Made by a program: the position numbers and the translations under genes
In this document: positions 8,911-56,318 of the stretch, one piece after another
How positions within the stretch are numbered: the first letter of the stretch is position 1
How the letters are laid out: each line of letters starts with the position of its first letter
IMG/VR virus record: IMGVR_UViG_3300022665_000963
Span: 1-56,327 of that record
Reading direction: 5' to 3' (one strand)
Length of the DNA stretch: 56,327 nt
DNA from: a virus
The notes under the pieces: model-generated
Told to the model about the DNA's origin: nothing
Databases searched by the model: none
The model's input: the letters and a program-made list of their open reading frames with translations, nothing else

Positions 8911-9495
8911 ATGACAGTTGTTCAATTTTATGAAAACGTAGGTAAGGCGAATGGCACCCGGGATCCCCTCGACGTGTACGAGACGCCCGGGTATGTCACG
9001 CGAATATTGCTGGAACACGTCGACTTGGATGGACCAGTGCTCGAGCCCGCAGAGGGTAGTGGTCGGATATCCCGGATACTACGTGACACGGGCCTGGGCC
9101 TGGAGGTAGTTGGACAGGACATAAGGACCGGTCACGATTTCATGGCCTACGAGGGACCCTGGGAGGGAGACATCGTCACCAATCCACCCTACAGGGACGG
9201 TCTGGCCCAGGCCTTCACAGAACATGCCTTGGCTGTGGCGGAGGGCCGAGTGGCGATGCTCCTGAAGTCGGGATTTTTGTGGGCAGACTGCAGGAGAAAG
9301 CTATTCTGGCAGAATCCCCCGGAACTCATCCTCATCATACCGGACAGGGTGCTATTTGTACAGCGGGACGGTACTCCCATATCCGGGCAGGTACACAGCC
9401 ATGAATGGCTGGTATGGCCCAAGAGAGAGGATAGGGGACCTGACGTGACTACCAGGATGGAATGGTCAAGAGACCTTAGAGAACTAGAAATATAA
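8911..9495 (+). CDS. DNA N6-adenine methyltransferase
   Basis: Class I methyltransferase motifs are clear: LEPAEGSGRI (residues ~44-53) for SAM binding and DIVTNPPYRDG (~87-97) with the NPPY catalytic motif of amino-methyltransferases. Order I then IV puts it in the gamma/alpha-like arrangement with a short target region, 194 aa in total. It would methylate adenine in phage DNA, most simply to evade host restriction. It is unusual to find it between two connector genes; no cognate endonuclease is seen, so it is probably an orphan enzyme. Confidence 0.8.
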   Translation: MTVVQFYENVGKANGTRDPLDVYETPGYVTRILLEHVDLDGPVLEPAEGSGRISRILRDTGLGLEVVGQDIRTGHDFMAYEGPWEGDIVTNPPYRDGLAQAFTEHALAVAEGRVAMLLKSGFLWADCRRKLFWQNPPELILIIPDRVLFVQRDGTPISGQVHSHEWLVWPKREDRGPDVTTRMEWSRDLRELEI

Positions 9496-33729: not shown

Positions 33730-34809
33730 ATGGCAAGACCCCAGATCCCCGAAGAGGAGCTCATGCTGGCTGCACAGGCCTACTACGACCACGGTGGAAA
33801 TAAGGCCGAGGCCGCCCGTGCCCTGGGGTTAAAATCACAGACATACCTCGACCGCTTGACCATGGCACAGCAGCGCCTGGGCATAAAGATAGGTAAAGTC
33901 GTCGATGGTAAGGTGGAGAGGACCGAGAGCCTCCAGTATAAGTTACCGATCAAGAGCCACATAAAACGCTACATCCTTACTTCCATACAGAACAACACCC
34001 ACCTGCATCCTGGTTTTAATAACCTACTGGCATACCTTGACTGGCTCGATGGTTTGGACGACGCCAGCTGCGAGTTACTGATCGGCACCTACTCCTACCA
34101 GCTGAATGCCTACGGGGCCAAAGCTGTGAAAAGAGGTACCTATAAAAATACCTCTTTTGAAAATGTATGGTATGCCCCTGAGGCGGAGCGGTATATATCC
34201 GATAAGAGTATCGAACTCGCCCCGGGTCTGGTCTGGTGTGGCGAACAAAATATCCTACCGACCACTAAATATCCCCTGACCTCTTTCGAAGACTACAACG
34301 GACGTAAATCCAACATCGTACCGCACTCCAAGATATCCATGGAGAGTGTAGCCTCGATGGCTAACGAGGCGACCAAGTTCAACTACTCGACCGGCACGAT
34401 TACCCAGAGGAACTACATCCAGAAGCGTGCGGGCATCCTGGCGGAACAGAAGCACCACTATGGGGCTCTGCTCGTCGAGGTGGACTGTGAGGGTAACTGG
34501 TGGGTGCGTCAGCTACATATAGACCGGGAGGACGGCATAATGGACGTCGGGCCTAAGGGTTCCGGTGGGGTATACATCCAGTCCGGTCAGGTACACAACG
34601 AGAGGGTGACCGAGAGCATATACTGGGGAGATGCCCACGCAGCTGAGCTGGAATTGTGGGTACGCGAGCTGGGGTGGGGTAACGGTGGGATGCTCGACAC
34701 CCTGCGACCCCCGTACCAACTCATGGGCGACGTGCTGTCCATGCGCACCCGGGGCCACCACGAGATGCGAGACTTCCAGAGGAGACCGTTAAGGAGGAAG
34801 TCCAACTGA
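33730..34809 (+). CDS. T5 A1-like protein, N-terminal part (split gene)
   Basis: The first ~50 residues hold a helix-turn-helix (GGNKAEAARALGLKSQTYLD). The remainder leads into a calcineurin-like metallophosphoesterase domain: ESIYWGDAHAAELE gives the GD metal site. The frame then stops at 34809 (...DFQRRPLRRKSN), while the missing NHD and GHxH motifs continue in the -1 frame (34743 onward). In T5, A1 acts in the second step of DNA transfer and host DNA breakdown; that role is inferred only from similarity of layout. Confidence 0.6.
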   Translation: MARPQIPEEELMLAAQAYYDHGGNKAEAARALGLKSQTYLDRLTMAQQRLGIKIGKVVDGKVERTESLQYKLPIKSHIKRYILTSIQNNTHLHPGFNNLLAYLDWLDGLDDASCELLIGTYSYQLNAYGAKAVKRGTYKNTSFENVWYAPEAERYISDKSIELAPGLVWCGEQNILPTTKYPLTSFEDYNGRKSNIVPHSKISMESVASMANEATKFNYSTGTITQRNYIQKRAGILAEQKHHYGALLVEVDCEGNWWVRQLHIDREDGIMDVGPKGSGGVYIQSGQVHNERVTESIYWGDAHAAELELWVRELGWGNGGMLDTLRPPYQLMGDVLSMRTRGHHEMRDFQRRPLRRKSN

Positions 34810-34853
34810 CCGCGGACTTCGTCAGCGAGGCCGACCGCAAATGGTGCGAGACG

Positions 34854-35345
34854 GTGATCATAGCATCCAACCATGACAGGCACCTGGAGAGGTGGCTGAA
34901 CGAGGCAGACTTCCGACAGGATCCGGTCAATGCCAAGTATTTCATGGAACTCCAGTGGCAGATGCTCGACGCCATAGACCGGGGCGACAAGGACTTCAAT
35001 ATACTGGAGTGGTCCCTCTTAAAAACAGGGGTATCGACCGAAGTGCGATTCCTTGGCCTTGATGAGAGTTTCGTCATAAAGGGAGTAGAGAGCGGTCTAC
35101 ACGGGGATCTAGGACCCAACGGATCGAGAGGATCGACACGCGCTCTGACCAAACTTGGCCGACCGATAAACAAAGGCCACGATCATACTGCTGCCATAAG
35201 GGACCAAGTATATTCCTCGGGTGCCTGCTCCTTGAGCTTCCCCTATATGAAAGGTCCGAATTCACATTCCGTCAGTCACATAACGACCTATAAGAACGGA
35301 AAACGGGCCCTAATAACGATGTGGTCGGATAAGTGGAGAGCTTAG
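34854..35345 (+). pseudogene. T5 A1-like protein, C-terminal part in a shifted frame
   Basis: Continues the metallophosphoesterase domain: IIASNHDRHLERWLNEADFR (NHD motif), SGLHGDLGPNGSRG, and RPINKGHDHTAAI (GHxH motif). The open frame extends upstream to at least 34743 without a stop and reads ETVKEEVQLTADFVSEADRK before the first GTG at 34854, so the natural product must enter from the upstream frame. There is no good binding site for separate translation, although AAGGAGG lies at 34791-34797. No canonical slippery heptamer is visible at the junction; a frameshift mutation or sequencing error is likely. Confidence 0.6.
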
Positions 35346-38351: not shown

Positions 38352-38807
38352 TTACTGGAGAAAATTGTCGTATTTTGAAGCTGCGATAATTATATCAGTC
38401 GCCGTGGCCTTTGGGTCTACGGCGGCATAATTTTTTAAGGCATCCTCAGTCATTCCACGCTTGAGAGCGCCCTGAAAATCCGCTGGTATAAGGTAGCGCC
38501 CCGCGGAGGCTCCCTGCCCGACTTGGATCAGTACGAAGGCCCTGCCACCAGCTTCTATCCGTCTGTTGAGCCAGGGCAGCTGGGCTGGTTCAAACCGGAG
38601 CTTTATCTTGGTCCGTGGGTTACTGGGCCGGGCCTCGCATTTCAACTCTATCCAGAACTGTATTCCCTTCAAGCAGCCCTCGACGTCTGCCATACCCATC
38701 ATCACGCTATTTTCGATACGATTCAGGTGAAGGTCCTTCTTGAATATGCGCTTGGTCTTGTTTAACCACCCCCACAATCGAGCTTCTCTGACTTTACCGT
38801 TAGCCAT
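38352..38807 (-). CDS. PD-(D/E)XK nuclease-like protein
   Basis: 151 residues. Pattern RIENSVMMGMADVEGCLKG, then FWIELKCEA, gives an Asp/Glu...E-x-K active site as in VRR-NUC and resolvase-like phage nucleases; the next strand (FVLIQVGQGASAGRYLI) fits the fold. It may process recombination or replication intermediates. It overlaps the following upstream gene by 8 nt. Confidence 0.65.
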   Translation of the reverse strand: MANGKVREARLWGWLNKTKRIFKKDLHLNRIENSVMMGMADVEGCLKGIQFWIELKCEARPSNPRTKIKLRFEPAQLPWLNRRIEAGGRAFVLIQVGQGASAGRYLIPADFQGALKRGMTEDALKNYAAVDPKATATDIIIAASKYDNFLQ

Positions 38808-39096
38808 TGTTAGTGTTTATTTCCTCTTGAAATAGGGTTGCTAAGGCACGACCTCGACCCCGGAATAGGGCTTCGAGTTCACCCTGGGCTGCTTCATAGG
38901 TCGAGATTACCATGTCATCGGTCTTCTCGTAGGCCTTGTCGTGCCCACAGAACATGTTGATAACCAGTAGTTGGGCTGTGCTGATCTTACACTTTCCCAG
39001 CATAATACCGTTCTCGTGAACCGTATTCTCGATCCAGTTTTTCTTGAACTTTTCGAGCCCTGGTCCCTGGGCGATTCCTTTTATCTCAAATTTCAT
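38800..39096 (-). CDS. Unknown protein, 98 aa
   Basis: ATG 39096 with GGAGAAG upstream. No recognised domain; moderately charged, with LLVINMFCGHDKAYEKTDDM and a C-terminal helix (EGELEAL-like) ending FQEEINTNNG. It lies between dCMP deaminase and the nuclease gene, so it may belong to DNA metabolism. Confidence 0.6.
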   Translation of the reverse strand: MKFEIKGIAQGPGLEKFKKNWIENTVHENGIMLGKCKISTAQLLVINMFCGHDKAYEKTDDMVISTYEAAQGELEALFRGRGRALATLFQEEINTNNG

Positions 39097-39142: not shown

Positions 39143-39583
39143 TTAATCGTGGAGCCATCCTTCTAATTGGACGACCTCTATTCCCACGGTCTCTAGCATA
39201 ACGAGGGCCATGTCCATTTCCTGTACCCAATTACTATTCCTATCTATAGGAGGAGTAACCACTCGTTTTATTCCGTTCTGGATTAGGGCACCAGCGCACT
39301 GGGCGCAGGGAAATAGGGTCACATACATCGTCCAGCCGCGTACCTTACTGGGACAGTTGTCGATAGCATTCTGCTCGGCATGTATTATGATCCGGTTCTT
39401 GTCCTCCCTGCTCAGGTGCTCCAGCATGGTATCATCCAGTTTACTTGGAAGGCCATTGTACCCCCAGGACACGGAGCGTCGGTCCGGTGAGACGAGCAGG
39501 GCCCCGACCCTACGACGAGGGTCCTTGGACCATTCCTGCACGTCCTGGGCCATACTGAAGAACCGCTTATCCCACTTATTCAT
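39143..39583 (-). CDS. dCMP deaminase
   Basis: 146 residues with the zinc-deaminase motifs HAEQNAI (His68, Glu70) and PCAQC (Cys93, Cys96). It converts dCMP to dUMP. The upstream region SKDPRRRVGALLVSPDRRSV is typical for the dCMP group. The ATG overlaps the stop of the thymidylate-synthase-like gene (ATGA), so the two are translationally coupled. If the neighbour uses dCMP, the two enzymes would compete for or partition the dCMP pool. Confidence 0.9.
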   Translation of the reverse strand: MNKWDKRFFSMAQDVQEWSKDPRRRVGALLVSPDRRSVSWGYNGLPSKLDDTMLEHLSREDKNRIIIHAEQNAIDNCPSKVRGWTMYVTLFPCAQCAGALIQNGIKRVVTPPIDRNSNWVQEMDMALVMLETVGIEVVQLEGWLHD

Positions 39584-40428
39584 AGTACGAGCTTCGGACA
39601 GGGGTTCCAGGAGTTATGGGCCACCCGGCCGGACAGTCTGGAGACTAGCGTCACATAGTCATCGGGCCTGTCGACTATCTCCTTGACGGACCAGCACGGT
39701 AGGTTGGGTTCCACGGCAGAAATCCAGGTGCTACGCTTCCCGATCAGGCAGTCCTCTATAGCCTGCTCATGGGGGTCATAGCTATGGGGATGTGCCAGGG
39801 TAAAGTGAAGCGTACCGGGGGTGCAGTTACAGCTGGCGGCCACCGCGTCGAGCGTCAGGGCATAGCCCATAACGTCGTAGGGCAGTCCCACGAAGACGTC
39901 GGAGGACCGTATGAACACTGAGCAGTGGATCTTACCCCCTATGCGGGAGAGGGTGAAGCCCACAGGGCAGGGGATATTCTTGGGCTGATTGGGCGCCCCC
40001 AGGCCATCTGTACGGGGGTCCCAGGCGGAGATGAACAACTGTCTGTTGGTTGGGTTGCCCGACAGCTCATATATAGCCATGGCCAGCTGATCCCTGCCGA
40101 AGTGCTTACGCCAGCGGTAACCGTAGGCCGTCTTGAGCTTGCCGTCCTCAACGAAGTCCTGCCATATCTTGTGAGCCTTCTTGAGTATCCAGTCAGGCGA
40201 CTGTGTGCCCATGAACTGCCAGGCGGTCTCGGCCGCAGCGACCCGGGGCCAGTAGCGCCTGTTTCCCGCGACTGGCAACCTACCGTTAGACAGGTCGAGC
40301 TTGAAGGAGTAAGCCCCCTCCAGGGCCCGGATATCGACGCCCGTCCGAGCATTCGTCTCGTCCCGGCCGTGGTGATACACCTCTGATAATAGACGCTTAT
40401 AGGCTTTAGCGAAGGTCTCGACTTTCAC
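39580..40428 (-). CDS. Thymidylate-synthase homolog, predicted dCMP (hydroxy)methylase
   Basis: GTG at 40428 overlaps the upstream stop (GTGA), giving 282 aa. Family features: Arg28 in NARTGVDIR, GRLPVAGNRRYWPRVAAAE (Glu67 equals E. coli Glu58), catalytic Cys154 in NIPCPVGF, phosphate-binding Arg in RSSD, and HSYDPH equal to the His-x-Tyr of dUMP binding. The block is RSSDVFVGLPYDVMGYAL; E. coli has LPFNIASYAL. The Asn that selects uracil is therefore Asp here, as in T4 dCMP hydroxymethylase. The His after the catalytic Cys is Pro. Confidence 0.75.
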   Translation of the reverse strand: MKVETFAKAYKRLLSEVYHHGRDETNARTGVDIRALEGAYSFKLDLSNGRLPVAGNRRYWPRVAAAETAWQFMGTQSPDWILKKAHKIWQDFVEDGKLKTAYGYRWRKHFGRDQLAMAIYELSGNPTNRQLFISAWDPRTDGLGAPNQPKNIPCPVGFTLSRIGGKIHCSVFIRSSDVFVGLPYDVMGYALTLDAVAASCNCTPGTLHFTLAHPHSYDPHEQAIEDCLIGKRSTWISAVEPNLPCWSVKEIVDRPDDYVTLVSRLSGRVAHNSWNPCPKLVL

Positions 40429-41462
40429 AGTAGATTCTCCATGAGTTGCTTGACGTTGAACTCCAGGTCCTCGAGCGTGCCGTTGTTGTCCAGCACGTAG
40501 TCCGCCATCCAGGGCTCGACAGTACAGGATTCCGAAGCCTCGCGAGGAACGAAGTCTGACCTGTCCACCCATATGATGGTGTCCACGATGCCCGCATTCT
40601 TGAGGGCGTTCAGTTCCGCCTTGCTTCGCAACCCACAGTAGACGTCGTGGTCCTTGAATATGGCGCGTCCCAGGGCCGTCGCGTCGGGCCGGTTGAGGGC
40701 CCTGATGGTATCGTACCACAGGGCCCGGTGGTTGTGGCGGTCCTGGAAGCACTCCGCGAAGTTGTTATACTTACCCTTCAACCCCGCCAGTTCTGGTGTG
40801 GTCTCGGCCTCTATGCCTGCAAAAATGACGTTCTCCGCGCAGAACAGACTGCTCGACGTGAAGCGTCTTCCGTACTGGTCTCGCAGCATCTCCGATACTG
40901 TATCCTTACCGTGCCTGCCGTGGCCGATCACCAGGATTTTACGGTCCCTCAGGGTCGTCCCTCGTAGTTCTTCAGGAATTATTATCCCGATATCAGTGAT
41001 AGGGACCTCCATGATGGGTATGGGATCGGATGCCGGTTCGGGTAACCGATGGGCGATTAGTATTTGTTCACGCGTGATTGTGAGGTAGGGCCCAAGGTCC
41101 GGGGGCGTCCAGCCCTCTGGCTTGACGGCGTCGAAGCCCAGTGAACCCGGGCGCTTGGATATGGCGCCCTGCCGCTTGGCCATGTTGGCACGGTGCACCT
41201 CCTCGAAGGCCGCGCCGGGTGTTATCCCCATCTCTATGAGGGTACCCATCGCCACGTATATCAGGTCCAGCAGACCGTCGGTCACCTGCTCCAGATTTAC
41301 ATTGCCTACACCTTTTTCGATTTCGTCCATTTCTTCACACAAATGGCGACGGCGAAAATAACATCTGTCGTGACTCAGTAGTGTTGGCTTGTCTGGGATG
41401 GGTAATCCGATTATGTCCCGGTTAAAGCGTAACACCATCTCATGCATTTTGTCTAAGGTCAT
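40425..41462 (-). CDS. Fusion: MazG-like nucleotide pyrophosphohydrolase and dNMP kinase
   Basis: ATG 41462 behind AGGAGA; 345 aa. Residues ~1-115: all-alpha MazG-like domain with EEMDE (about 43-47) and DGLLD (about 62-66), the acidic metal site. Residues ~175-345: kinase with P-loop GHGRHGKDT (180-188) and a C-terminal domain as in phage deoxynucleoside monophosphate kinases. T4 does the same two steps with gp56 (dCTPase) and gp1 (kinase). Its stop overlaps the thymidylate-synthase-homolog start. Confidence 0.75.
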   Translation of the reverse strand: MTLDKMHEMVLRFNRDIIGLPIPDKPTLLSHDRCYFRRRHLCEEMDEIEKGVGNVNLEQVTDGLLDLIYVAMGTLIEMGITPGAAFEEVHRANMAKRQGAISKRPGSLGFDAVKPEGWTPPDLGPYLTITREQILIAHRLPEPASDPIPIMEVPITDIGIIIPEELRGTTLRDRKILVIGHGRHGKDTVSEMLRDQYGRRFTSSSLFCAENVIFAGIEAETTPELAGLKGKYNNFAECFQDRHNHRALWYDTIRALNRPDATALGRAIFKDHDVYCGLRSKAELNALKNAGIVDTIIWVDRSDFVPREASESCTVEPWMADYVLDNNGTLEDLEFNVKQLMENLL

Positions 41463-41910
41463 CGCACTGTCTCCTATCAATATACCAATTCAGTTTGCCA
41501 TCATTGGGCTGTATGTCCAGCCGACCGTCCACGAATATCGCCCAACTATCTGCGGAGTATTTACCACACCCAGGCATCTTCAAGACGTCATCATAGCACT
41601 CTGGTTTTCCCTGTAACCAAGCACGGGCGAACTTTGGTAAAGTAATGGCCCTACGTCGCCACAGGCCCAGAGGCTTCAGTATTTCGTGCAGGGTCTCGGC
41701 CTCCGCCTCGGCCAGGGACTCGGGCGTTAGGTGCCTGGCCAGTATGTACTGGAAGGCCGGCTCGGCTTGACCTTCCCAGTTTGTAAGATTTACTAATTGA
41801 CACGCAACGAGCATCCAAAATGGATTATACTTAAGTCTTTCTTGAAACAATTGTCCTTTCTTCGGAACAGATAGCTTTGGCGAGTTTGATGACGTCTTCA
41901 ATCCAGCCAA
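41440..41910 (-). CDS. HhH-GPD DNA glycosylase-like (MBD4-type)
   Basis: 156 residues, probably a TTG start. NPFWMLVACQLVNLTNWEGQ at the N-terminus, LKPLGLWRRRAITLPKFARA, then the helix-hairpin-helix LKMPGCGKYSADSWAIF and an Asp in VDGRLDIQPND fit the endonuclease III/MBD4 group. No iron-sulphur Cys cluster. It would remove a damaged, mismatched or modified base. Its end overlaps the fusion gene by 23 nt, so it belongs to the same metabolic operon. Confidence 0.7.
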   Translation of the reverse strand: MAGLKTSSNSPKLSVPKKGQLFQERLKYNPFWMLVACQLVNLTNWEGQAEPAFQYILARHLTPESLAEAEAETLHEILKPLGLWRRRAITLPKFARAWLQGKPECYDDVLKMPGCGKYSADSWAIFVDGRLDIQPNDGKLNWYIDRRQCDDLRQNA

Positions 41911-42203
41911 CTATCGTCGTCGGCTACAACCTTAGGGGTCTCGTCGAACGGATCAGTACAGTTCCCAGGCAATTCTACCGTGGCGATATCGCCTACCAGT
42001 ACGTAGCCTATGCCGTGGTCCTTCTGTAGCATGTACAGGTAGGACAGGGCATTCGACCGCGTCATGGTGAACTCTGCCATCACCTCACGGATTGAGCGCG
42101 AGTTGTCGTTGTCCAGGAACCACTTCAGGAACTTACCCCTCTTACTCGAGACCTTGGGAACACACGTCCTTGCCACCCTTCTTGCGGTTGTCCTCGCCAC
42201 CAC
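41898..42203 (-). CDS. Winged-helix DNA-binding protein, ~100 aa
   Basis: The start is uncertain (GTG codons at 42203 and nearby, no clear site); the body from about residue 20 is convincing: RSIREVMAEFTMTRSNALSY and LQKDHGIGYVLVGDIATVEL make a winged helix. The C-terminus ADDDSWLD is acidic with a buried-type Trp, like several other tails in this genome. It may regulate transcription or bind DNA at replication. Confidence 0.55.
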   Translation of the reverse strand: MVARTTARRVARTCVPKVSSKRGKFLKWFLDNDNSRSIREVMAEFTMTRSNALSYLYMLQKDHGIGYVLVGDIATVELPGNCTDPFDETPKVVADDDSWLD

Positions 42204-42573
42204 CTGTCATGATCTGCTTGGGCACCTCGAGACCCAGACGCTTGAGTATGAGGGCGCACGTGTCGTAGTCCCTCTGCCACCCGAATTCCTGCATGGTCTT
42301 CCACTTGTCCTTGATCATGGTGTACAGGCGATCGAGGTCGAAGGCCTTGGGCTCGGAGGCCGTCGCTATCTCCAGGCAGGCATTGGATACCGTGTATGCG
42401 CTGAAAGTGTAGGGACAAAAGATTGTCGATCTCTTCTCGCCTGATAGTACGAGGGCGTGCTGCCAACCGGCACAGGGCGGATCAGAGACCCCGTTCATGT
42501 ACCTTGCGCCCTTGGGGGTCTTCCCCTTGACCCAGTATATGTGAAGCCAATCTAGTCCTTCAGCTATCTGCAT
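42142..42573 (-). CDS. Unknown protein, 143 aa
   Basis: ATG 42573 follows GGGAGA and overlaps the upstream stop by 14 nt. Contains LDWLHIYWVKGKTPKGARYM, a Cys in DPPCAGW, and a hydrophilic end GGGEDNRKKGGKDV. No family recognised. Its context in the metabolic operon offers the only hint of function. Confidence 0.6.
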   Translation of the reverse strand: MQIAEGLDWLHIYWVKGKTPKGARYMNGVSDPPCAGWQHALVLSGEKRSTIFCPYTFSAYTVSNACLEIATASEPKAFDLDRLYTMIKDKWKTMQEFGWQRDYDTCALILKRLGLEVPKQIMTGGGEDNRKKGGKDVCSQGLE

Positions 42574-42871
42574 GATCGACTCTCCCATGACTGTACTTGG
42601 CCAGTTGATCCGTTACCTTCTGAACGCCGAGGATGAAGGGATCTGTCACTGCAATGCTGAGATCAAGCCAAGGTATTACTTGGATGGCCTCATAAATAGG
42701 AACACTAGAACTCTTCATTAGATCGCAGGTAATACGGCCCCGAAGGAGTATACCATGGACATTTAATTCAAATGTGATATGCAGGTCACCAACTATCAGG
42801 GGCAATCGTTGGCCTGCCTCTCGGATGCGCTCATACGCGATCTGCTCAGGATTCTTATTGGTATCGCTCAT
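42560..42871 (-). CDS. Unknown protein, 103 aa
   Basis: ATG 42871 with TGGAGACAG upstream, a leader shared by many genes on this strand. Beta-rich middle (LHITFELNVHGILLRGRITC). First gene after the strong terminator at 42892-42935, so it relies on read-through or a promoter I cannot see. No family recognised. Confidence 0.65.
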   Translation of the reverse strand: MSDTNKNPEQIAYERIREAGQRLPLIVGDLHITFELNVHGILLRGRITCDLMKSSSVPIYEAIQVIPWLDLSIAVTDPFILGVQKVTDQLAKYSHGRVDHADS

Positions 42872-45624: not shown

Positions 45625-46230
45625 TTATGAGAGCATCTTGGCTTGTGAGAGCATCTTGGCTATGAGACGCCTGTGACGCTTGAGCCATGCCCGCTCCATC
45701 AGCCAGAAGAATCGGCCTCTGATCGGCATGAACTTGACCCCCAGTGGTTCCATGTCGTCGGTACCCCACCTGTTGTCTGAGGGGTTCATCACGGTGGCCC
45801 TCTCGTCCACCAGGATGCGGGTGTCCGCCTCCTTGAGCCAGCCTGGGAAGGGCCATATGGTACCGAACCGCCGGGCTATGACCTGGTCTATCCCTTCCTC
45901 GATCACCTTGAACTGTGGCACCTTGTCCTTTACTGGCCGTATCATGTCACCGATGGCATACTCGGCATCATCATGATGCAGGGCTGTCAGGCCGTCCCGG
46001 GGCGTGGCCCACGGTTGCTCCATCACCCAGTCTGACATTATGCACGTGTGCTCGCAGACGGAGTACCAGCGCTTGGTGTGTCCGTTGTACCGGCACTGTC
46101 TCGCGAGGGAGTACGCGACGTCCTCGGGCTCTATCATGTCGACCGTGGGATTTTCGAAGAAGAACTTCTTGCCACTCACGATCTCGAACCAGCCGTCTTC
46201 GACTTGATATAAGGGAGTTTTCTTGGTCAT
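45625..46230 (-). CDS. HD-domain phosphohydrolase (nucleotidase-like)
   Basis: 201 residues. Metal motif: WYSVCEHTCIMS (His61), HHDDAEYAIGD (His86-Asp87) and a final Asp in the C-terminal half; similar to YfbR-like 5'-deoxynucleotidases. It may trim dNMPs or dNTPs and so shape precursor pools. An 18-bp tandem duplication at the 3' end adds a repeated AKMLSQ/AKMLS tail. Confidence 0.75.
   Translation of the reverse strand: MTKKTPLYQVEDGWFEIVSGKKFFFENPTVDMIEPEDVAYSLARQCRYNGHTKRWYSVCEHTCIMSDWVMEQPWATPRDGLTALHHDDAEYAIGDMIRPVKDKVPQFKVIEEGIDQVIARRFGTIWPFPGWLKEADTRILVDERATVMNPSDNRWGTDDMEPLGVKFMPIRGRFFWLMERAWLKRHRRLIAKMLSQAKMLS
45629..45664 (-). repeat. 18-bp tandem duplication at the 3' end of the HD gene
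   Basis: GAGAGCATCTTGGCTTGT is followed at once by GAGAGCATCTTGGCTATG. It adds six in-frame codons near the C-terminus. Confidence 0.8.
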
Positions 46231-53107: not shown

Positions 53108-53674
53108 TCAGTTCTCCATGACATCCCGGACGATCGCCCACATGTCATCGTCGGTCATCTGGAACCGGTCGAAGTCCACGTCTGGTTCCACTCCCTTCAG
53201 GCACAGCGACTTGGCACCGTTGCTTCCTTCATGGGTCTTAGTCATGAGCGTGGCCACCTTTCCGTCTCGGCCCGGCACGGTCGCGTGGAACGCTTGATCC
53301 AGCATGTGGTACGTCTCGCCGGCTTCCACCAGCTGACGGCTCACCTGGCCGACCCAGACCTCTGCCCTCGGTATCCACGGCCGGTTGCCGAACTCGCTCC
53401 GCTCACCCTCGTGCACGTATGCGACGTGAGTATTGGGACCGGGATCATCCCCGAATTCATACACCGCATAGACGTCATTTATCTGCATGCCCTTGAGCAC
53501 GGTGCTGCTGAAGCCGAAGCGGTGACTGTGTATGTCCGAGTGCAGGAAGCACTTCCTGCGGGGCAAGTCTGGGTGCCACACGTGCAGCCTCTGTTTGGCC
53601 CCCAGCTTCACCTGGAGGAAGCCGAGACCGTGCAGACTGATGGTCCTCTCGGTCTCCTTGAATACCTTAGTCAT
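53108..53674 (-). CDS. Cupin-like phage protein, paralog 1
   Basis: 188 residues. LHVWHPDLPRRKCFLHSDIH is followed by SHRFGFSSTVLKG: His49 and His51 make the HxH of cupin motif 1, and ETYHMLDQAFHAT gives His129 in the motif 2 place. Family blocks EGERSEFGNRPWIPRAE and GKVATLMTKTHEG are shared with many phages. A metal-binding small-molecule or sensing role is plausible; substrate unknown. The neighbour upstream is a paralog. Confidence 0.6.
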   Translation of the reverse strand: MTKVFKETERTISLHGLGFLQVKLGAKQRLHVWHPDLPRRKCFLHSDIHSHRFGFSSTVLKGMQINDVYAVYEFGDDPGPNTHVAYVHEGERSEFGNRPWIPRAEVWVGQVSRQLVEAGETYHMLDQAFHATVPGRDGKVATLMTKTHEGSNGAKSLCLKGVEPDVDFDRFQMTDDDMWAIVRDVMEN

Positions 53675-53856
53675 TGTGTTCTCCTTAAGGATCTATAAAT
53701 GGTTGAATTTGATACTGTATACCATTCCTTGATTACTTCTACCCGAGAGCCCCCGTCATATTCCTCACGGATCTCTAGGTCATGCTTGTTAGTCAGATAG
53801 TTACCGTTCCTAAAGTTTCCCGTTGCGGTCCTGTAGTTACTATTAATAAGCGTCAT
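53671..53856 (-). CDS. Small unknown protein, 61 aa
   Basis: ATG 53856 lies inside the end of the next-upstream paralog gene; the in-frame extension is unlikely. Polar (INSNYRTATGNFRNGNYLTN), ending SLRRTQ. Sits between the two cupin-like paralogs, overlapping both. No function inferred. Confidence 0.45.
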   Translation of the reverse strand: MTLINSNYRTATGNFRNGNYLTNKHDLEIREEYDGGSRVEVIKEWYTVSNSTIYRSLRRTQ

Positions 53857-54358
53857 GCTCACAGTCCCCCAGTACCTCACACACTATCGCCCACATGGTT
53901 CCCTTATTCATCTGATGCGAATCAAAGTCCTCCTCATATGGGGCCATCCCCACGGAACCCATCAGCCTCATCGCGTCGTGGCCCTTCGTCACCTTCGTCA
54001 CGAGGGCTGCTACGCGTCCGTCCCCGCAGGCCGTGGTCGAGTGGAACACCCGGGCCTTGAGCTGGTACGTCATGCCCGCGCCGATCGTCTGATGGCTGAC
54101 GTGGTTGAGCCAGAAATCTGACCTAGTATCCTTGATGGAGTTGTTTACCACGAAAACATCCTGTATCTGTACGCCCCGGAGTACCTGACTCTTGAAGCCA
54201 TAGGCATTATCGTGTATCTGGGATTCGCAGTAGCCTTTCGCTCTCGGTAGGTCCGGATGCCAAACGCACAGTTTTTGGTCACCGTCCAGCCTCACCTCGA
54301 TGAAACCAAGACGGTGCAGACTGATATCACCTTCGATGTTCTGGTTAAGTAGTGTCAT
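53843..54358 (-). CDS. Cupin-like phage protein, paralog 2 (altered metal site)
   Basis: 171 residues, aligned with the 53108-53674 protein (ISLHRLGFIEVRLDGDQKL, VWHPDLPRAKGYC). Cupin motif 1 reads IHDNAYGF in place of IHSHRFGF, so the second His is Asn; the motif 2 His is retained (VFHSTTACGDGRVAAL). The EGER/FGNRPW segment is missing. It probably lost metal binding or changed substrate. Confidence 0.6.
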   Translation of the reverse strand: MTLLNQNIEGDISLHRLGFIEVRLDGDQKLCVWHPDLPRAKGYCESQIHDNAYGFKSQVLRGVQIQDVFVVNNSIKDTRSDFWLNHVSHQTIGAGMTYQLKARVFHSTTACGDGRVAALVTKVTKGHDAMRLMGSVGMAPYEEDFDSHQMNKGTMWAIVCEVLGDCEHDAY

Positions 54359-54893: not shown

Positions 54894-56318
54894 TCAATCC
54901 TCTACGTCGTCGAAGTCTGAGGCAGGGTCCACCACCACGGCGGGACGCTTGTCGTCCTCTGCCGCCATCGTCAGGCCGCCCTCGGGCTTCACCAGCAGCC
55001 TGTCATTGAACTTCTGCCTGTCCGCCTTGGGAAGTAGCTTCTCGACCTTCGGTCCGGTCAGGAATACTGGTTCGGTGTGCAGCTCGTCCTCCGTCAGACC
55101 GAAGTCCTCGACCAGTTCCCTGACGATGTCCTCCTCGGACACCTCCTCGACCGTGGCCTCATCGCCCTCCACCTCCGAGGCGATACGTCGCTGGTTTATC
55201 CACTTGCGGCCGCTGGACCGCTTGCGGACGATCTTGAAGCCGTCGATTGTACCCCCCGCCAGGAGCTTGGTCTCGGCGCTCGCCTTGACCTCCTTGCTCC
55301 ACTTGTCGAGGAACGGTATCCAGGGCAGCACGATCGCCAGCAGGTTCTCGCCCGGCGTCTCCACCTTCTCGGGCTCGTCGTCGAAGTCGATGCAGGCGAG
55401 CTCCTGCGCCTTGGCCAGGACCGCTGGACAGGTGGCCTTCAGCTCACAGAAGGTGCAGTGGGACCCGTCCTTTCCGACGGACAGGAGTCCCAAGCTATAG
55501 AGATTATCGAGGGAATTACTGCTCTCGACTTCAGCCCTGGCCAAATCAACCCGCTTCGCCTTCGTGACGAGCCAGTCCTTCCACTTCACGAGCTCTGCGA
55601 CCGTGGTCTCCTCGCTCATTATGCCATCGGACGGGGCCTGCAGGTGCCTCGGTTGGCAGATCGTGTACCTCACGACGTCGTAGCCCATGCCCTCCGTGAC
55701 GAGCAGGGCGCCCAGCGCATAGGACCTGAGCTGCATGTTCCCCCCGACGGGCACGAAGACCCCCGCGCCGTGCTTGTAGTCCACGACCTCCAGGACCTCG
55801 GGCCAGGCGTCTATGATGACGTCCCCGGTCCCGCCGGTGTCATCCCTCTCGGGCAGGGGCACGACGTGGGCCTCGAGGCGCACGACGCCCCTCTCTACTA
55901 GGCCCCGTACCGCCTCCCGGATTGAGTGGTCTGTCAGACCGTCGTCAATCAATTCCAGCTCCATGCAGCGGCGTCCGACATAGTACACCATGCACTCGAC
56001 GGCCTCTATCATGTCGTTGTCCACCTCGAACACGACGCTGGTCGCCCCCTTGGGCCATCTGGCGCCCTCCTTCAGGATGGAGGTGCCCTCGTTGCCCTCA
56101 CTGTCCTCGACGATCACGATGAGCCGACCCTTGAAGCTGGAGGGCGCGAGGCCCCTCTCCAGGCACCTCTCCACCAGGGCGTGGGCACAGGTACCCATCT
56201 GTGCGTGATATCCCGAGCCCGCGCGCAGTTCGGGGTGGGCCTCGATGTACGCGGTGGACCCTGGGCAGGTTGTCCACTGTTTGGTCTGGCTGGCGCTCAG
56301 CCTGGCATGTCTTGTCAT
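54894..56318 (-). CDS. RecB/Cas4-like exonuclease (DUF2800)
   Basis: 474 residues. N-terminus LSASQTKQWTTCPGSTAYIE with Cys18, His46 (AHALVE), Asp166 (GTGDVIIDAW), Asp180 and Lys182 (VVDYKHG), all PD-(D/E)XK positions. Cys18 with Cys288, Cys291 and Cys297 (CTFCELKATC) predicts a [4Fe-4S] cluster. It would degrade DNA ends, perhaps with the helicase or ssDNA-binding protein in recombination. C-terminal tail acidic (DFDDVED). It starts nine bases from the window end, so its promoter lies outside. Confidence 0.85.
   Translation of the reverse strand: MTRHARLSASQTKQWTTCPGSTAYIEAHPELRAGSGYHAQMGTCAHALVERCLERGLAPSSFKGRLIVIVEDSEGNEGTSILKEGARWPKGATSVVFEVDNDMIEAVECMVYYVGRRCMELELIDDGLTDHSIREAVRGLVERGVVRLEAHVVPLPERDDTGGTGDVIIDAWPEVLEVVDYKHGAGVFVPVGGNMQLRSYALGALLVTEGMGYDVVRYTICQPRHLQAPSDGIMSEETTVAELVKWKDWLVTKAKRVDLARAEVESSNSLDNLYSLGLLSVGKDGSHCTFCELKATCPAVLAKAQELACIDFDDEPEKVETPGENLLAIVLPWIPFLDKWSKEVKASAETKLLAGGTIDGFKIVRKRSSGRKWINQRRIASEVEGDEATVEEVSEEDIVRELVEDFGLTEDELHTEPVFLTGPKVEKLLPKADRQKFNDRLLVKPEGGLTMAAEDDKRPAVVVDPASDFDDVED

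What the first reader, a model, noticed from the sequence alone, without database searches (positions are those of the whole stretch)
39143..41462. A compact dCMP-modification operon: deaminase, TS homolog, dCTPase/kinase fusion
Three coupled genes (ATGA and GTGA overlaps) cover the steps T4 uses for hydroxymethylcytosine: break dCTP to dCMP (MazG-like domain, like gp56), modify dCMP (TS homolog, like gp42), phosphorylate the product (kinase domain, like gp1). dCMP deaminase is next door. No glucosyltransferase is visible in this window, so the base may stay small or be decorated by genes outside it.
Basis: inference. Interest (0 to 1): 0.75.

Follow-up and report, generated by a model that had tools for sequence, protein, structure and literature searches.

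The report
Phage 5-methylcytosine operon with MBD4-like glycosylase
This phage carries a short gene cluster that most likely swaps its cytosines for 5-methylcytosine before they enter DNA, together with a DNA-repair gene resembling the animal enzyme MBD4 that probably repairs the T:G errors such DNA accumulates.

Summary
The operon is real and correctly placed: dCMP deaminase, thymidylate-synthase (TS) homolog and MazG/kinase fusion, coupled by ATGA and GTGA overlaps. It is conserved in RDJL Phi 1-type roseophages and Bradleyvirinae. The T4 hydroxymethylation reading is disfavoured. The Asp three residues before the catalytic Cys, present in T4 gp42 and in M6's enzyme, is Asn here, and D145N kills the T4 enzyme. 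Relatives usually carry DHFR beside the TS (34 of 44 loci), as a hydride-transferring methylase would need; none of 80 T4-type loci do. Xp12, a phage of this group, has 5mC for every C. Best reading: a dCMP methylase pathway making 5mC DNA, so no glucosyltransferase is needed. Its homologs sit beside this TS type (14 of 44 loci; 0 of 80 T4-type). In an unrelated contig one directly precedes a cytosine-C5 methyltransferase. Proposed role: repair of T:G mismatches from 5mC deamination.

The parts
41440..41910 (-). HhH-GPD DNA glycosylase, MBD4-like (156 aa, probable TTG start at 41910 overlapping the upstream stop; predicted catalytic Asp137)
   Evidence: PF00730 7e-7; best PDB sequence relatives are MBD4, 2e-12, against 8e-7 for the best endonuclease III; AlphaFold model pLDDT 89.8, the 16 best PDB folds all MBD4; homologs in the same place in other phages
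40425..41462 (-). MazG-like NTP pyrophosphohydrolase (residues ~1-130) fused to a P-loop dNMP-kinase-type domain (~172-345); ATG at 41462 with an AGGAG upstream
   Evidence: PF01503 5e-10; phrog_38514 1e-111 whole length, phrog_139 dNMP kinase 2e-13; fold matches DR2231 MazG-like and T4 dNMP kinase 1dek; same fusion in RDJL Phi 1/2/3/6, Tedan, RcSimone-Hastad, RcRudolph
39580..40428 (-). TS homolog, predicted dCMP methylase; N151, C154, P155, D185 (= E. coli 143, 146, 147, 177)
   Evidence: PF00303 1e-39; active-site alignment; GTG start overlapping the fusion stop
39143..39583 (-). dCMP deaminase (HAE ... PCxxC zinc motif)
   Evidence: PF00383 2e-22, phrog_174 8e-47
38800..39096 (-). 98-aa protein of unknown function lying where most relatives have dihydrofolate reductase
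   Evidence: no Pfam or PHROG match; DHFR absent from the whole window
38352..38807 (-). phrog_2165 protein, annotated nuclease or helicase in relatives; conserved downstream neighbour of the operon
   Evidence: 1e-34; present after the deaminase or DHFR in most relatives

Best explanation
The operon makes 5-methyl-dCTP for a phage genome in which 5-methylcytosine replaces cytosine, as in Xp12. Proposed steps: (1) the MazG domain cuts dCTP (and perhaps dUTP) to the monophosphate, removing plain dCTP from the pool and supplying dCMP; (2) the TS homolog transfers a methylene group from CH2-THF to C5 of dCMP and reduces it by hydride transfer, giving 5-methyl-dCMP and dihydrofolate; (3) the fused kinase domain phosphorylates 5-methyl-dCMP, and host NDP kinase completes it; (4) polymerase inserts 5-methyl-dCTP; (5) the deaminase turns dCMP into dUMP, and possibly 5-methyl-dCMP directly into dTMP; (6) the MBD4-like glycosylase removes T from T:G mismatches left when 5mC deaminates. 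Shown by sequence: gene identities, order, translational overlaps, the dCMP-type Asp, absence of the hydroxymethylase Asp, the MBD4-type fold and catalytic residues, and co-occurrence. Inferred: every reaction and the base content of the virion DNA.
For: TS active site: Asp at E. coli 177, as in T4 gp42 (dCMP), against Asn in ThyA and M6; Asn at 143, where T4 gp42 and the dUMP-hydroxymethylase-type M6 protein have Asp and ThyA has Leu; Pro at 147. The N-C-P-D pattern holds in all 56 IMG/VR sequences of this class, whereas the T4-type class is D-C-T-D. Park et al. (PMC6400193) name that Asp as the hydroxymethylation signature and find D145N inactive; TS yields DHF and needs DHFR, dCH does not. 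DHFR lies within 5 kb of 34 of 44 N-C-P-D loci against 0 of 80 T4-type loci. Xp12 has 5mC for all C (PMC7653180), is a Bosavirus beside AXL1 (PMC11946847), and its DHFR is about 91% identical to AXL1's (PMC9206674); AXL1 carries the same glycosylase-pyrophosphohydrolase-TS-deaminase-DHFR order and its DNA resists most enzymes with G/C in their sites. Glycosylase: MBD4 by sequence and fold; MBD4's Gln449, Tyr540, Asp560 and Lys562 align with Q23, Y118, D137 and K139. It is linked to N-C-P-D TS (14/44 against 0/80), and in L029, without such a TS nearby, it directly precedes a cytosine-C5 methyltransferase (PF00145 2.5e-22).
Against: No biochemistry or base analysis exists for this phage or for any RDJL-type phage found here. 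Xp12's genome is not in the collections, so its TS was not compared directly. Asn143 is not the TS residue (Leu) either. Thr sits where T4 has Ser94, which is half of the hydroxymethylase signature. DHFR is missing from the window, Tedan, JWT, L019/L020 and L051. The glycosylase lacks MBD4's arginine finger (R468 is Leu42) and is absent from many close relatives, so it is accessory. The 44 and 80 loci are related to one another, so the Fisher P values overstate the evidence.
Confidence: 0.66

Rival explanations
1. T4-like hydroxymethylation: the TS homolog makes 5-hydroxymethyl-dCMP and the DNA holds 5hmC, naked or decorated by genes outside the record; the glycosylase would then excise 5hmU from 5hmU:G.
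For: Asp177-type dCMP specificity and Thr at the Ser94 position; MazG + dCMP deaminase + TS also co-occur in metagenomic contigs selected for modified C (PMC8670742); MBD4 also acts on 5hmU:G.
Against: The catalytic Asp145 equivalent is Asn in the window and in every full-length relative of this class bar one Ser, and D145N is inactive in T4 gp42; DHFR linkage; no carbamoyl- or glycosyltransferase found among the genes scanned; Xp12 kinship.
Confidence: 0.17
2. Pool management only: 5-methyl-dCMP is made as an intermediate and deaminated to dTMP, a route to thymidylate by way of cytosine, while the virion DNA keeps ordinary C.
For: Deaminase coupled to the TS homolog; no canonical TS in the window (one search finds only this one); a title on 'a new thymidylate biosynthesis' in Xp12 infection is cited in PMC11946847; that it proceeds by deamination of 5-methyl-dCMP is my recollection, not checked.
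Against: MazG plus dNMP kinase in the same operon suits incorporation of the product; Xp12 and AXL1 data point to modified DNA; the linked MBD4-like gene makes sense only if 5mC is in DNA.
Confidence: 0.1
3. The glycosylase is a general uracil/thymine-glycol type HhH repair enzyme with no link to the modification.
For: Lacks the arginine finger of MBD4 (Leu42); present in only about a third of N-C-P-D loci.
Against: MBD4 is much closer than endonuclease III, NTHL1 or MutY by sequence and fold; Tyr118 replaces the bifunctional Lys of endonuclease III; linked to two unrelated kinds of 5mC-making enzyme.
Confidence: 0.25
4. Ordinary dTMP synthesis, as the database annotation 'thymidylate synthase' implies.
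For: Annotated so in RDJL Phi 1, AXL1 and others; DHFR neighbours.
Against: Asn177, the uracil-specificity residue, is Asp in the whole clade.
Confidence: 0.05

Closest known systems
Xp12/AXL1-type (Bosavirus, Mesyanzhinovviridae) cytosine-modification operon
   Same: Same order (glycosylase, pyrophosphohydrolase, TS homolog, dCMP deaminase) and same active-site pattern in AXL1; Xp12 is reported to hold 5mC for all C and to be its close relative.
   Different: Window MazG is fused to a dNMP-kinase domain, whereas Bosavirus MazG carries another C-terminal region; DHFR is missing in the window; Xp12's own genes were not read here.
Roseobacter phage RDJL Phi 1 (Xiamenvirus) 'Cof hydrolase'-thyA-cd-frd cluster
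   Same: Same MazG/kinase fusion (53% identity), TS (59%) and deaminase order.
   Different: RDJL Phi 1 has DHFR and no glycosylase; its modification has not been described in the papers found.
T4 genes 56, 42, 1 and cd
   Same: Same logic of steps: dCTP removal, dCMP modification, dNMP kinase, deaminase; Asp for dCMP.
   Different: T4 gp42 has Asp145 and lacks the C-terminal tail; genes are scattered; glucosyltransferases follow; no MBD4-like gene or DHFR near gp42-type genes.
MBD4 glycosylase domain (also Mig thymine-DNA glycosylase, 1kea)
   Same: Fold (TM 0.73-0.79 over the query) and catalytic Gln/Tyr/Asp/Lys.
   Different: No methyl-CpG-binding domain; arginine finger R468 is Leu; phage-borne, no relative found in a one-scan pattern search of bacterial genomes.

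Membership tests
dCMP hydroxymethylase (T4 gp42 type) | Asp at the Asn177/Asp179 position for cytosine | tested here: met
   D185 in the window protein
dCMP hydroxymethylase (T4 gp42 type) | Asp or Glu three residues before the catalytic Cys | tested here: not met
   Asn151; criterion from PMC6400193
dCMP hydroxymethylase (T4 gp42 type) | Ser or Thr two residues before the catalytic Tyr | tested here: met
   T-A-Y in the window, but Ala, Ser, Asn or Gly in other members of its class
dCMP hydroxymethylase (T4 gp42 type) | No TS C-terminal tail | tested here: not met
   The C-terminal end aligns with ThyA's tail region; T4 gp42 stops before it
dCMP methylase (Xp12 type) | TS fold with Asp177 and no hydroxymethylase Asp | tested here: met
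dCMP methylase (Xp12 type) | Homology to the Xp12 enzyme itself | tested here: inconclusive
   Xp12 record not held; its close relative AXL1 matches
dCMP methylase (Xp12 type) | Makes 5-methyl-dCMP from dCMP | not testable with these tools
   needs an enzyme assay
Canonical thymidylate synthase | Asn177 for dUMP | tested here: not met
   Asp185
MBD4 glycosylase domain | HhH-GPD fold closest to MBD4 | tested here: met
MBD4 glycosylase domain | Catalytic Asp560 with Gln449, Tyr540, Lys562 | tested here: met
   D137, Q23, Y118, K139 by alignment
MBD4 glycosylase domain | Arginine finger R468 | tested here: not met
   Leu42; Arg in L024, L025 and L029
MBD4 glycosylase domain | T:G glycosylase activity | not testable with these tools
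   -
MazG-like all-alpha NTP pyrophosphohydrolase | EExxE ... acidic metal-binding motif | tested here: met
   E43, E44, E47, D62, D66 invariant in 12 sequences; DR2231 fold
Deoxynucleoside monophosphate kinase (T4 gp1/DNMK) | Match to the curated DNMK family | tested here: inconclusive
   Pfam DNMK 0.0046, below cut-off; phrog_139 2e-13; P-loop GRHGKDT; 1dek by fold, low TM
Deoxynucleoside monophosphate kinase (T4 gp1/DNMK) | Accepts the modified dCMP | not testable with these tools
   -

The most novel reading that the evidence does not exclude
Phages that write 5-methylcytosine into their DNA carry their own MBD4-like T:G glycosylase, a deamination-repair partner coupled to the methylating enzyme. 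It arose with two unrelated 5mC-making enzymes (TS-type dCMP methylase and DNA C5-methyltransferase), parallel to Vsr beside Dcm in bacteria and MBD4 in animals (these parallels from my own knowledge).
Probability: 0.55. Interest if true: 0.7.

Novelty: new variant of a known kind. Interest (0 to 1): 0.58.

Why it matters
It moves dozens of phage genomes now labelled 'thymidylate synthase' or 'Cof hydrolase' into a predicted 5-methylcytosine class, and gives a short residue test (Asn143 + Asp177 against Asp143 + Asp177) that separates dCMP methylases from hydroxymethylases. Flodman et al. left the Xp12 5mC pathway for later publication and the AXL1 authors called the mechanism unknown (PMC7653180, PMC9206674); the operon offers a direct candidate. 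The linked glycosylase would be a phage-encoded answer to the mutational cost of 5mC, and possibly a compact T:G enzyme.

Tried and rejected
Looked for sugar transferases, carbamoyltransferase and C5-methyltransferase in the window: none among the genes scanned. Looked for DHFR in the window: none. Looked for Xp12 itself by accession, by similarity and by two published PCR primers in viral contigs: not held. Bacterial relatives of the glycosylase: none by one pattern-based scan, which is not exhaustive. A TS tree did not resolve the base of the N-C-P-D class (support 17, with long-branch M6 falling inside), so class membership rests on residues; only the T4-type clade was firm. Literature searches for a phage MBD4-like protein found nothing relevant. 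Considered a hypermodified-thymine pathway as in M6: rejected for this operon, because M6's enzyme has Asn at 177 and Asp at 143.

Full report
OBSERVATION. The window is a 56,327-base IMG/VR virus record. On its minus strand the described genes are present at the stated coordinates: dCMP deaminase (39583-39143), TS homolog (40428-39580) and a MazG/kinase fusion (41462-40425), with ATGA and GTGA overlaps. The fusion's ATG has an AGGAG upstream. A fourth gene belongs to the same run and was not mentioned: an HhH-GPD glycosylase at 41910-41440, whose end overlaps the fusion's start by 23 bases.

CONSERVATION. The fusion is found whole in Roseobacter phages RDJL Phi 1, 2, 3 and 6, Ruegeria phage Tedan and Rhodobacter phages RcSimone-Hastad and RcRudolph (39-53% identity). 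The order fusion (or MazG)-TS-deaminase, usually followed by DHFR and a phrog_2165 protein, holds in these and in Mesyanzhinovviridae/Bradleyvirinae phages such as AXL1, Donnerlittchen, ZQG1, PaMx74 and DoCa5. In the Bradleyvirinae the MazG domain carries a different C-terminal region with no P-loop, so the kinase fusion is a feature of the alphaproteobacterial-phage branch. The window lacks DHFR, as do Tedan, JWT and the IMG/VR contigs L019, L020 and L051.

WHICH BASE. Asp at E. coli TS position 177 marks dCMP rather than dUMP enzymes (PMC8670742 and PMC5175136). The window and all its relatives have Asp there; ThyA and the M6 protein have Asn.

METHYL OR HYDROXYMETHYL. Park et al. solved T4 gp42 with dCMP and THF and give as signature of hydroxymethylases an Asp (Glu in some) three residues before the catalytic Cys, which activates the water; D145N destroys activity (PMC6400193). 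T4 gp42 and M6's dUMP-type enzyme have Asp there, ThyA has Leu, and the window's class has Asn with Pro after the Cys. Among IMG/VR loci, 56 full-length sequences are N-C-P-D and 85 are D-C-T-D; one is S-C-P-D. T4 gp42 lacks the TS C-terminal tail; this class keeps one. The chemistry also predicts DHFR use: TS-type hydride transfer gives dihydrofolate, hydroxymethylation gives tetrahydrofolate (PMC6400193). DHFR lies within 5 kb in 34 of 44 N-C-P-D loci found by the TS-only scan and in none of 80 T4-type loci. The loci are not independent, some T4-type contigs are short, and the DHFR profile was built from the N-C-P-D phages, so the contrast is suggestive rather than exact.

LINK TO A KNOWN 5mC PHAGE. 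Xp12 has 5-methylcytosine in place of all C (PMC7653180) and is classified as a Bosavirus with AXL1 (PMC11946847); its DHFR is about 91% identical to AXL1's and the two share nearly identical gene order (PMC9206674). AXL1 carries glycosylase-pyrophosphohydrolase-TS-deaminase-DHFR, its TS is N-C-P-D, and its DNA resisted 26 of 31 restriction enzymes. The AXL1 authors wrote that the genetic mechanism is unknown. I propose that this operon is the mechanism. Xp12 itself was not available here for a direct check.

THE GLYCOSYLASE. Its best sequence matches in the PDB are MBD4 (2e-12), well ahead of endonuclease III (8e-7) and MutY. An AlphaFold model (pLDDT 89.8) has MBD4 as all of its 16 best PDB folds, followed at a distance by NTHL1, MutY and the thymine glycosylase 1kea. 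Human MBD4's Gln449, Tyr540, Asp560 and Lys562 (PMC12073362) align with Q23, Y118, D137 and K139; the arginine finger R468 aligns with Leu42. A Tyr where endonuclease III has its catalytic Lys suggests a monofunctional enzyme (inference). Of 12 IMG/VR contigs found with the glycosylase as query, eight carry an N-C-P-D TS nearby and one (L024) a TS fragment at the contig edge. Two others, L029 and L030, lack it nearby but their contigs encode a cytosine-C5 methyltransferase; in L029 the two genes overlap. L027 has neither in 25.5 kb. Starting from the TS instead, 14 of 44 N-C-P-D loci have the glycosylase and 0 of 80 T4-type loci do. The common factor is an enzyme that yields 5mC, whose deamination gives T:G, MBD4's substrate.

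MECHANISM AND CONFIDENCE. Steps and their status are given under the best explanation. I put 0.66 on the 5mC pathway and about 0.55 on the glycosylase being its T:G repair partner. The kinase and pyrophosphatase specificities are inferred from context; the MazG domain's nearest solved relative, DR2231, has been crystallised with dUTP/dUMP analogues, so dUTP hydrolysis is also possible.

NOVELTY. The operon is a new member of an Xp12/RDJL-like group; what is new is the reassignment to methylation for the whole group, the MazG-kinase fusion seen as part of it, and the MBD4-like partner, which deposited records call endonuclease III, ENDO3c or hypothetical and for which no description was found.

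Noticed in passing
41898-42588 (minus strand): The phrog_11422 protein is split between two overlapping frames here but is one ORF in JWT, L019, L020, L051, L054 and L061: a frameshift, an assembly error or a programmed shift.
   Followed up: partly
33730-35345 (plus strand): A phrog_1745 'DNA transfer protein' is also split into two ORFs covering profile positions 65-342 and 376-541.
   Followed up: no
53108-53674 and 53843-54358 (minus strand): Two neighbouring genes match the same unknown family phrog_4784, apparently a duplication.
   Followed up: no
8911-9495 (plus strand): Matches phrog_799, named DNA methyltransferase, inside the structural region, but no Pfam family; the name may come from a fused neighbour domain.
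   Followed up: partly
45625-46230 (minus strand): HD-type dNMP 5'-phosphatase (phrog_318 2e-47, YfbR-like weak), another nucleotide-pool gene; M6 has an HD hydrolase right after its TS homolog.
   Followed up: no
L030:109-9253: A contig with a distant MBD4-like glycosylase also holds sugar epimerase, family-2 glycosyltransferase and DNA ligase genes, and a C5-methyltransferase about 7 kb away; it might decorate its DNA further.
   Followed up: partly
41440-41910 (minus strand): The glycosylase gene has lower third-position G+C (0.52) than its operon neighbours (0.63-0.75), which would fit recent gain.
   Followed up: no
54894-56318 (minus strand): DUF2800/PD-(D/E)XK Cas4-like nuclease, a gene type that the AXL1 authors link to evasion of restriction.
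   Followed up: no
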